Below, piece after piece: positions 30,721-34,120 of a stretch of 64,000 nt of DNA. Made by a program: the position numbers and the translations under genes. The notes beneath the pieces are model-generated. The model made no database searches. It was not told the DNA's origin and was given only the letters and a program-made list of their open reading frames with translations. The stretch comes from Fibrobacteria bacterium (GTDB lineage: Bacteria > Fibrobacterota > Fibrobacteria > UBA11236), in assembly GCA_025360005.1 (NCBI GenBank), contig JANYDA010000052.1, positions 62,001-126,000 of the forward strand. The letters run 5' to 3'. Each line of letters opens with the position of its first letter. The first letter of the stretch is position 1.

Positions 30721-31572
30721 TTACTTAGTCAGTTGTCCACGCTCAAGCAAATCCGCGAAAGTTTCCAAATCCTGCCGGTTCATGTAATGGATTTCCAGTA
30801 CGCCGCGGTTTTCGTTCCCTTTGAGGGTAACCTTGGTGCCCAGGAGAAAGCGCAACTTTTCCAGAAAGGCCTGGGCATTGGGATTGAGCGCCTTGGTGCT
30901 ATCCGATTTGCGTCCGCCGGATTTTTCCGCGCGCCGCACGTTAAGGTGATCATCCACGATTTTCTGAGCCAGCTTGGCGCGCTTTTTCGGATCGGTTTGC
31001 AATAGGGCGCGGCCGTGGCCCGCGGTCAGCTTACCCTCTTTGATCATCGCCTTCAGATCATCTTCTAGTTTGAGCAGACGCAATGTGTTGGTGATGGCGG
31101 AGCGGCTCTTGCCCAACTTCTGCGCCAACTCGTCATGGGTGATGCCGCAATTGTTGATCAACTGCTCAAAGGCGATGGCTTCTTCGATGGCATTCAGCTG
31201 CACGCGCTGGATGTTCTCGATGAGGGCCATCTCCATCATGTCGCGATCGGAGAGCTGCTCGCGCACCAGAGCCGGGATCAGGGTACGGCCCAAAAGCCGC
31301 ATGGCACGGAATCGGCGTTCTCCGGCTACTATCTGATAGCCGTCATGATGCTTGCGGAGGAGGATGGGCTGCAAGAGCCCTTTTTCCTTAATCGAGTTGG
31401 CCAGCTCTTGGATTTCTTCGGGACCGAAGTCAGTGCGCGGCTGGAAGGGATTTGGAGCTATTTTAGAAATTTCAATTTCCAGCGTGGCCGATCCCGTCTT
31501 GGGATGCACCACTTCCTGACCCAGGTTTCCGAAGATGGCTTCCAGGCCTTTGCCCAGGGCTTTCCTAGTCAT
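30721..31572 (-). CDS. parB: chromosome partitioning protein ParB
   Basis: A 283-residue ParB/Spo0J. The CTP-binding N-terminal domain has the boxes NPFQPRTDF and VAGERRFRAMRLLG with ENIQRVQLNAIEEA. A helix-turn-helix (THDELAQKLGKSRSAITNTLRLL) reads parS, and a C-terminal dimer domain follows. It loads at parS and spreads as a sliding clamp. Two perfect-core parS sites lie 1.7 kb away inside the acyltransferase gene. It overlaps parA by 8 bp. Confidence 0.98.
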   Translation of the reverse strand: MTRKALGKGLEAIFGNLGQEVVHPKTGSATLEIEISKIAPNPFQPRTDFGPEEIQELANSIKEKGLLQPILLRKHHDGYQIVAGERRFRAMRLLGRTLIPALVREQLSDRDMMEMALIENIQRVQLNAIEEAIAFEQLINNCGITHDELAQKLGKSRSAITNTLRLLKLEDDLKAMIKEGKLTAGHGRALLQTDPKKRAKLAQKIVDDHLNVRRAEKSGGRKSDSTKALNPNAQAFLEKLRFLLGTKVTLKGNENRGVLEIHYMNRQDLETFADLLERGQLTK

Positions 31573-32344
31573 TCAGGATGATCTCCTTGGCCAACTCCAT
31601 GTAACGCATGGCTCCTGAACTCAAGGCATCATAGAGAATGATCGGTTGTCCGAACGAGGGGGCCTCGCTCAGCTTGACGCTGCGGGGGATGATGGTTTTG
31701 AACACCTTTTCGGAAAAGGTGTTTTGCACATCCTCGGCCACCTGTTTCGAGAGGTTCAAGCGACTATCGTACATGGTCAGCAAGGCGCCTTCGATGGAAA
31801 GCTTGGGATTCAGGTTCTGTTGCACCAGGCGGATGGTATTCAAAAGTTCGGCCAATCCCTGCAGCGCATAGTATTCGCATTGGATGGGAATCATCACCGT
31901 GTCCGCTGCGGTAAGTACGTTCAGAGTGAGCATGCTTAATGAGGGCGGCGAATCGATGAAAATGAAATCATAGTCGTCCCGGACCGCTTCCAGTACGCGC
32001 ATCAGGCGTTTTTCCCGGAGGGGTTGGGTGATGAGTTGGACTTCCAGGCCCGCCAGGGAGCGTGAGCAGGGAAGGACCTCCAGGAAAGGCATACTGGTGG
32101 GCTTGACGAAATGGCGTACTTGGGCCTTGGTCACATCGCCTTCGGCCTGGGTCAGGATATCGTAGAGATCTTCTTCAAAATCCTGGGGACTGAAGCCCAA
32201 ACCTTGCGTGGCATTGGCCTGGGGATCCATATCCACCAGCAATACCTTTTTCTCCATCGCAGCCAGTGCCGCCGAGGTGTTCACACAAGTCGTGGTTTTG
32301 CCCACTCCACCCTTCTGGTTGCAAGCGGCGATAATCCGGCTCAC
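31565..32344 (-). CDS. parA: chromosome partitioning ATPase ParA/Soj
   Basis: A 259-residue ParA: deviant Walker A KGGVGKTTTCVNTSA with both signature lysines, LLVDMDPQANATQGLG (Walker A' region) and Walker B DFIFIDSPPSLSMLT. It forms ATP-dependent nucleoid-bound dimers that move ParB-parS complexes. There is no N-terminal DNA-binding domain, as is typical for chromosomal Soj. Its start overlaps the rsmG stop (ATGA). Confidence 0.98.
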   Translation of the reverse strand: MSRIIAACNQKGGVGKTTTCVNTSAALAAMEKKVLLVDMDPQANATQGLGFSPQDFEEDLYDILTQAEGDVTKAQVRHFVKPTSMPFLEVLPCSRSLAGLEVQLITQPLREKRLMRVLEAVRDDYDFIFIDSPPSLSMLTLNVLTAADTVMIPIQCEYYALQGLAELLNTIRLVQQNLNPKLSIEGALLTMYDSRLNLSKQVAEDVQNTFSEKVFKTIIPRSVKLSEAPSFGQPIILYDALSSGAMRYMELAKEIILND

Positions 32345-32940: not shown

Positions 32941-33244
32941 AGGGTAGGTAAATGTATCATAAAGTTTTTGGATTTCAATGATTATCGGCCGCTGAGGGAG
33001 AAGCAAGGGTGGGATGGGCGTTAAAAGGACGAGGAAAGGCAAGAATTTTGCCCCTCGACGTCCTATATCGAGCGCTAAGATCAACGCTAAGATGAATTGG
33101 GCGACTATTTCAGCCGGCGAGCTTTACTAGTTCCTTGGCACCTAGGAGCGCAATCCCATTTCAAGGCTTTTGATTTTGCTCCGACGCTGAATGTCGATCG
33201 CCGACGAATGCTGCTAAATCCTACCAAGTTTAATCCTTCCGCTC
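32941..33244. other. intergenic region upstream of rsmG
   Basis: 304 bp between the acyltransferase stop and the rsmG start. I see no gene, clear promoter or strong hairpin. The 3' part could encode an N-terminal extension of RsmG, judged unlikely. Confidence 0.5.
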
Positions 33245-34120
33245 TCATTCAATTCTCTGTTCCTTGCCTTTTGACGTTTCACGTGAAACCATAACTCCTG
33301 GTGCCACCGATGTTTCACGTGAAACATGAACTTTGCCCTGTAGATCCAACAGGTTTTGAAAACGACCGTGGGCTAAGCCGTACCAGTAGGCGGGGTGGGT
33401 CCGAACTAAAATTTCCAAGATGCGATGGTAGCGGCGGGCTAGGTTTTTGTTTGGATGCTCGGATCGGCTTGGGTCTGCTATTTGGATAAGGCGAAGCTCT
33501 CCACTCGGAAGCAATGCGCCGAAAAATACCGGAGTGGGCGCTTTCTCGACAAGGAATAGGGGGAGAGGATCTAGAAGCAATCTCTGGCCAAAGAAGGGGG
33601 CCGTGACGGCGGAGTGATCCACCCGCTGATCCCACAGCAGAGCAAAGCAATTTCCAGCCTGCAAATGCCGCCAGGCGCGACGGGGAATATCTTTGAATAT
33701 GATCTTCATTCCCAACCGGTTTCTCAGACGCACAAGCAAAGATTGGCTCCAGCCACGGGCCATGGGCCGCGCGCCGCTCAAGAGCGGGACCCCTTGGCTG
33801 GTCATCCATGCTCCCATCAACTCCCAGTTGTGAAAGTGGGCCGTCAAGAAAAGTGACGAGCTGTTTTTCAAACGCTCGAGAGACTGGAGGTCTCGATGGC
33901 GAAGATGAATGGTCTTTGCGTATCGGCCATGAAAAAATTGCAGCAGATCGAAAGCGAGGGCTTGATAGAATAGGAGTCGGAAACCCAACGAGTATGGAAG
34001 ATGACATAAATTTGCGTTTAGGTGAATTTTTTCCCGTTTCCAACCCATCACAGTGAGAAAGACGACCAAGGGAAGAGAAAGTACCCCTATATATAGTTTA
34101 TATAGTTTTTTCTTAAACAA
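33245..34120 (-). CDS. LpxL/HtrB-type lipid A acyltransferase
   Basis: A 291-residue lysophospholipid-acyltransferase-like protein. An N-terminal hydrophobic segment (YIGVLSLPLVVFLTVMGW) anchors it in the inner membrane. The catalytic HX4E motif is HFHNWE. Later motifs include ARPMARGWSQSLLVRLRNRLG (glycerol/lipid site) and FALLWDQRVDHSAVTAPFFGQ (DQ...FFG), all typical of LpxL/LpxM. It would add a secondary acyl chain to lipid A. The C-terminal 30 residues contain VSRETS twice; each VSRET is the translation of a parS site. AT-rich DNA and a Lys-rich start (FKKKLYKLY) mark its 5' end. Confidence 0.9.
   Translation of the reverse strand: MFKKKLYKLYIGVLSLPLVVFLTVMGWKREKIHLNANLCHLPYSLGFRLLFYQALAFDLLQFFHGRYAKTIHLRHRDLQSLERLKNSSSLFLTAHFHNWELMGAWMTSQGVPLLSGARPMARGWSQSLLVRLRNRLGMKIIFKDIPRRAWRHLQAGNCFALLWDQRVDHSAVTAPFFGQRLLLDPLPLFLVEKAPTPVFFGALLPSGELRLIQIADPSRSEHPNKNLARRYHRILEILVRTHPAYWYGLAHGRFQNLLDLQGKVHVSRETSVAPGVMVSRETSKGKEQRIE
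33276..33289. promoter_or_regulatory. parS site 1 (within acyltransferase gene)
   Basis: GTTTCACGTGAAAC, the 14-bp core of the parS palindrome. The flanking bases deviate (C and C) from the full 16-mer. ParB-binding centromere site. Confidence 0.92.
33311..33326. promoter_or_regulatory. parS site 2 (within acyltransferase gene)
   Basis: TGTTTCACGTGAAACA, an exact 16-bp parS palindrome, 35 bp from site 1 centre to centre. Both sites are read in the same frame as VSRET in the acyltransferase. Confidence 0.96.

What the first reader, a model, noticed from the sequence alone, without database searches (positions are those of the whole stretch)
33276..33326. Two parS centromere sites embedded in the coding sequence of a lipid A acyltransferase
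Seen: two palindromes, GTTTCACGTGAAAC and TGTTTCACGTGAAACA, 35 bp apart in the last 100 bp of the LpxL-like gene, each read in frame as VSRET, so the protein ends with VSRETS twice. Known: this palindrome is the ParB-binding parS site, and parAB lie 0.9-2.6 kb away. Inference: the C-terminal extension of the acyltransferase is maintained partly because the DNA is a centromere, a dual coding/centromere constraint.
Basis: partly seen in the sequence, partly recalled or inferred. Interest (0 to 1): 0.65.

Follow-up and report, generated by a model that had tools for sequence, protein, structure and literature searches.

The report
Centromere sites inside an acyltransferase gene
The two DNA sites on which this bacterium probably assembles its chromosome-segregation machinery lie inside the end of a fat-attaching enzyme's gene, so the enzyme carries a tail spelled out by the centromere; the overlap is real and conserved in close relatives, but centromere sites inside genes are a known and fairly common arrangement.

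Summary
Two exact parS palindromes (33276-33289, 33312-33325; 36 bp start to start) lie in frame as VSRET in the last 81 bp of a Lip_A_acyltrans gene, 0.9 kb from parA. They are the only exact copies in the 4.98 Mb genome. Within the genus (Fibrobacterota), five of six species keep both sites in frame in the acyltransferase tail. The sixth, which branches first, and the sister genus have the sites outside the gene. The codons are frozen: 8/8 V, S, R, E codons are identical across five species, against 5/80 conserved codons in the core (Fisher 2e-8). The linker before the sites has pN/pS about 1, so the selection I can detect is on the DNA and not on the tail's amino acids. The frame is nevertheless kept open with constant length. 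Most likely the acyltransferase ORF overran an older intergenic centromere, and the tail is mostly a by-product. Intragenic parS is documented (Pseudomonas 9 of 10 sites; Thermus gidB). Here I found the same VSRET or FHVK readings in ParA, ParB and RsmG termini of unrelated bacteria. I file it as a new member of a known kind with an unusual carrier gene. ParB binding was not tested.

The parts
33311..33326 (.). parS site 1 (first in the gene's direction), TGTTTCACGTGAAACA, read as VSRET (V266-T270)
   Evidence: exact 16-mer; in frame in 5 of 6 genus members; codons invariant
33275..33290 (.). parS site 2, CGTTTCACGTGAAACC (exact 14-bp core 33276-33289), read as VSRET (V278-T282)
   Evidence: exact 14-mer; in frame in 5 of 6 genus members
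33245..34120 (-). lipid A acyltransferase-like gene (LpxL/HtrB superfamily) carrying both sites in its 3' tail; HX4E motif in TAHFHNWE
   Evidence: Pfam PF03279 E=8e-10 over residues 68-249; homologues in 93 of 101 relatives
33245..33358 (-). C-terminal tail after the conserved ...AHGRF end of the enzyme (11-aa linker, VSRET, 7-aa spacer, VSRET, 9 aa, stop)
   Evidence: absent from 25 other homologues examined; pN/pS of linker 1.02, spacer 0.62, core 0.44
31565..32344 (-). parA
   Evidence: Pfam AAA_31 E=3.6e-62
30721..31572 (-). parB; GERRFR motif of the CTP pocket and parS-type specificity residues R/T/K/G
   Evidence: Pfam ParB_N and HTH_ParB; aligned to ParB structures and published specificity residues
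32341..32940 (-). rsmG (gidB), between the parS gene and parA; begins 335 nt after parS site 2
   Evidence: Pfam GidB E=1.1e-39; start by conservation

Best explanation
The two palindromes are the chromosome's parS centromere: ParB-CTP dimers would load there, slide onto flanking DNA and be moved by ParA (inferred from the ParABS family, not shown here). In this genus the pair lies between the acyltransferase and rsmG-parA-parB. In the ancestor of five of the six known species the acyltransferase ORF came to read through it. Of the three reading frames of parS one always contains TGA; the other two read VSRET and FHVK, and this gene uses VSRET. The ParB site freezes these codons. The rest of the tail drifts close to neutrally, and the 30-odd-residue tail is mainly a tolerated by-product of gene-centromere overlap.
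For: The only two exact sites in the genome are this pair. Synteny parS-rsmG-parA-parB recurs through the class. ParB carries the parS-type residues R173, T179, G201, with K at 184. Zero synonymous change in parS1 and 8/8 identical V/S/R/E codons against 5/80 in the core, Fisher p=2e-8. Linker pN/pS 1.02 against 0.44 (core) and 0.28 (last 40 aa of the core). Polarity: G001 branches first in the genus (support 1.0 for the other five) and has the pair starting 223 nt after the stop; sister genus g2 has it in non-coding DNA before rsmG. Homologues without parS have no tail. The same type of overlap recurs in ParA, ParB and RsmG of other phyla.
Against: No binding data. The linker has the same length (33 nt) in five species although its nucleotide identity is only 0.36, and no stop has entered (naive P 0.006), which suggests some pressure to keep the frame. 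Loss of the tail in G001 alone is about equally parsimonious if g2 is left out. The oriC position was not established: the two DnaA-domain genes are on other contigs.
Confidence: 0.8

Rival explanations
1. True dual constraint: the C-terminal tail (or at least an open frame through the centromere) is itself useful, for example for enzyme stability, for membrane tethering of the origin, or for keeping ribosomes on the message that continues into rsmG-parAB.
For: Linker exactly 11 codons in all five species at 36% nucleotide identity; the one spacing change (57 bp in G003) is +21 bp and so in frame; no stops; the parS2-rsmG gap by contrast varies from 103 to 358 nt. Spacer pN/pS 0.62 is mildly below 1.
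Against: Linker pN/pS about 1; the sequence after parS2 differs in every species (2 to 40 residues); the earliest-branching species and 24 other homologues do without it. A spacing of 36 bp is also kept in G001 where it is not in the acyltransferase ORF.
Confidence: 0.15
2. The VSRET repeats are selected as a peptide motif, and parS-like DNA is incidental.
For: The peptide is repeated and conserved in five species.
Against: Synonymous codons are frozen only there; the exact palindrome occurs nowhere else in the genome; parS stays next to parAB in relatives where no VSRET is encoded.
Confidence: 0.01
3. The palindromes bind another regulator (CACGTG core) or are chance.
For: CACGTG is a common palindromic core (general knowledge).
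Against: A 14-bp exact match, twice, next to parAB; expected genome count 0.012; phylum-wide co-location with parAB.
Confidence: 0.02
4. The ORF's 3' end is not really translated (enzyme ends earlier or the frame is misassigned), so the overlap is only on paper.
For: Homologues end about 8-20 residues after HRRF; no expression data.
Against: The frame from the Pfam domain to the stop is uninterrupted in five species, with no frameshift or stop.
Confidence: 0.02

Closest known systems
Intragenic chromosomal parS sites of Pseudomonas aeruginosa PAO1
   Same: Nine of ten parS sites are predicted to lie within coding sequences; the authors mutated the intragenic sites without changing the protein (PMC4368675).
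   Different: There ten sites are spread over the genome, four of them near oriC; here the genome's only exact pair sits in one gene tail.
Thermus thermophilus chromosomal parSc within gidB (rsmG)
   Same: A centromere inside the gene upstream of parA, with ParB binding shown by gel shift (PMC4409726).
   Different: One site in rsmG, not two in a lipid A acyltransferase.
VSRET/FHVK parS readings in ParA, ParB and RsmG N-termini (Nocardiopsis, Nocardioides, Glycomyces, coriobacteria; loci)
   Same: Pairs of exact parS, 36 bp apart, read in frame in a non-conserved terminus of a gene of the par/gid region.
   Different: Carrier genes are par/gid genes and the N-terminus is used; here the C-terminus of an unrelated enzyme.
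Corynebacterium glutamicum parS cluster
   Same: Same 16-bp consensus and parABS family.
   Different: Only one of ten sites (parS1, in trpCF) is coding (PMC7083940).

Membership tests
Chromosomal ParABS centromere (parS) | Match to TGTTTCACGTGAAACA | tested here: met
   16/16 and 14/16 (14/14 core)
Chromosomal ParABS centromere (parS) | parA and parB nearby | tested here: met
   0.9-2.6 kb away, Pfam-confirmed
Chromosomal ParABS centromere (parS) | ParB with parS-type (not Noc-type) recognition residues | tested here: met
   R173, T179, G201 equivalents; K at 184, a position described as variable
Chromosomal ParABS centromere (parS) | Conservation of sites and location in relatives | tested here: met
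   Exact sites in 83 of 101 genomes (own genome counted); next to rsmG-parAB in nearly all regions read
Chromosomal ParABS centromere (parS) | Close to the replication origin | tested here: inconclusive
   rpmH-rnpA-yidD-yidC-mnmE synteny, weak skew and modest DnaA-box excess; DnaA-domain genes on other contigs
Chromosomal ParABS centromere (parS) | ParB binds the site | not testable with these tools
   Needs ChIP-seq or EMSA
Lipid A biosynthesis acyltransferase (LpxL/HtrB superfamily) | Pfam Lip_A_acyltrans domain and HX4D/E motif | tested here: met
   PF03279 E=8e-10, 38.8 bits against cut-off 22.3; TAHFHNWE in the sequence
Lipid A biosynthesis acyltransferase (LpxL/HtrB superfamily) | Acylates a lipid A precursor | not testable with these tools
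   Solved relatives match only weakly: lipid A acyltransferase 5kn7 at E=0.1

The most novel reading that the evidence does not exclude
The open frame through the centromere is itself selected: translating ribosomes, or the tail peptide, matter for how ParB occupies its only two loading sites, coupling acyltransferase expression to segregation.
Probability: 0.08. Interest if true: 0.6.

Novelty: new member of a known kind. Interest (0 to 1): 0.3.

Why it matters
It is a clean case of a protein tail dictated by a DNA-binding site: the centromere leaves only VSRET or FHVK as readings, so these peptides act as fingerprints of parS inside proteins of the origin region. This helps annotators (such tails and start codons should not be read as functional motifs) and gives a natural test of how much coding sequence can be ceded to a chromosome-structure element. 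I found no paper holding the string VSRET in the open library.

Tried and rejected
AlphaFold2 on three sequences gave mean pLDDT 38 and is not used. A peptide motif as the selected unit was rejected on codon invariance. The ORF census in the other bacteria uses greedy longest ORFs and is rough; only Pfam-confirmed cases are relied on. The Livny 2007 survey of parS distribution is not held. Two papers checked for intragenic parS said nothing useful.

Full report
What is there. Two copies of GTTTCACGTGAAAC lie at 33276-33289 and 33312-33325, starts 36 bp apart; the second is the full consensus TGTTTCACGTGAAACA. Both are inside ORF 33245-34120(-), which matches Pfam Lip_A_acyltrans over residues 68-249, and both read VSRET (V266-T270 and V278-T282). 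The genome (4.98 Mb, 65 contigs) has no other exact copy and a single one-mismatch copy on another contig, against about 0.012 exact copies expected. parA and parB follow rsmG on the same strand. The ParB has R, T and G at the positions equivalent to Caulobacter R173, T179 and G201 and K at 184. Jalal et al. describe R173 and G201 as the parS-type residues and positions 179 and 184 as variable among ParBs (PMC7383237).

Relatives. Of the six genus members, five (G000, G002, G003, G004, G005) carry both sites in frame as VSRET in the acyltransferase tail, spaced 36 bp or, in G003, 57 bp. In G001 the enzyme ends six residues after the conserved HRRF and the pair, again 36 bp apart, begins 223 nt beyond the stop. 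In the sister genus g2 the sites stand in non-coding DNA before rsmG in G007 and G008 (37 bp apart in G008; 34 bp apart with one mismatch in G007), and the acyltransferase gene is elsewhere. A tree of ParA, ParB and RsmG puts G001 as sister to the other five with full support. The simplest reading is centromere first, overlap later; a loss in G001 cannot be excluded. Twenty-five homologues outside the five (G001, four from g2 and 20 from the wider class) have neither the tail nor VSRET.

What is selected. In an alignment of the five enzymes, 80 core columns have the same amino acid in all five (M and W left out), but only 5 of these use the same codon in all five. The V, S, R and E codons of the two parS sites are identical in 8 of 8 (Fisher p=2e-8). 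Nei-Gojobori counts give pN/pS 0.44 for the core, 0.28 for its last 40 residues, 1.02 for the 11-residue linker before parS1 and 0.62 for the spacer, with no synonymous change in parS1. These counts are near saturation and the regions are short, so the ratios are rough. They show constraint on the DNA of the sites and none detectable on the linker's amino acids. One fact pulls the other way. The linker is 33 nt in all five although its nucleotide identity is 0.36, no stop has entered, and the only spacing change is a multiple of three, while the gap from parS2 to rsmG ranges from 103 to 358 nt in the six genus members. A weak pressure to keep the frame is therefore possible. The naive probability of an open frame in all five (0.006) overstates the case because the species are related.

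How general it is. parS has three readings per strand: VSRET, FHVK, and one that contains TGA. In a rough ORF census of 87 such pairs, 38 fell inside an ORF, 29 of them as VSRET and 9 as FHVK (it includes the two relatives of this genus and some double-counted triplets, and spurious ORFs are likely). Pfam confirms real carriers: ParB N-terminus in Glycomyces; ParA N-terminus in Nocardiopsis, Nocardioides and a Propionibacteriales MAG; RsmG N-terminus in a proteobacterial MAG, Nocardiopsis and coriobacteria (the ORFs there are stop to stop, so start codons are not fixed). Within Fibrobacterota, rsmG in about a dozen genomes begins on or beside a parS, with the only shared in-frame start codon being the GTG at the centre of the palindrome. 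Published cases include nine of ten sites in P. aeruginosa (PMC4368675) and a gel-shift-verified site in gidB of T. thermophilus (PMC4409726).

Verdict. The feature is real and the parS identification is strong. The mechanism (ParB loading, ParA-driven movement) is inferred from the family. The special claim, that the enzyme tail exists because of the centromere, is supported in the sense that the centromere dictates the codons; that the tail serves the enzyme is not supported. The arrangement is a new member of a known kind with an unusual carrier.

Noticed in passing
L093, L094, L097-L099, L101, L103, L104, L112, L116, L087 (rsmG 5' ends): In about a dozen Fibrobacterota genomes rsmG begins on a parS; no ATG lies upstream of the conserved core in most, and the only in-frame start shared by all is the GTG in the middle of the palindrome (TTG two bases before it in most). 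The centromere may supply the start codon of the gene upstream of parA.
   Followed up: partly
L092 (G033) 3952 and 4866; L104 (G092) 8621, 9707, 9876: In two genera the parS-like sites near parAB are TGTTTCCCGTGAAACA (or its complement), an asymmetric variant with one Noc-site-like half; the exact parS is absent from both genomes. Their ParB has S or T at the G201 position.
   Followed up: partly
ParB of G023, G024, G025, G033, G044, G047, G055, G063, G075, G087, G092, G097: Ser or Thr stands at the position of Caulobacter ParB G201, which PMC7383237 calls absolutely conserved in ParB orthologues; most of these genomes still carry canonical parS.
   Followed up: partly
window 32948-32981 (-): A block TTGAAATCC(A/G)AAAA...TATGATACATTTAC just before rsmG is conserved in nearly all six genus members (partly diverged in G003) amid otherwise divergent spacer; probably the rsmG-parAB promoter.
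   Followed up: no
L082 and L081, acyltransferase ORF before the RRYHR motif: The G005 enzyme has an in-frame RSPERGG tandem repeat and G004 a 39-residue insertion at the same place, as if a repeat element had entered the gene.
   Followed up: no
genome contigs C11:134229 and C45:32637: Two proteins with a Bac_DnaA domain, neither on the parABS contig; which is the initiator and where oriC lies is open.
   Followed up: no
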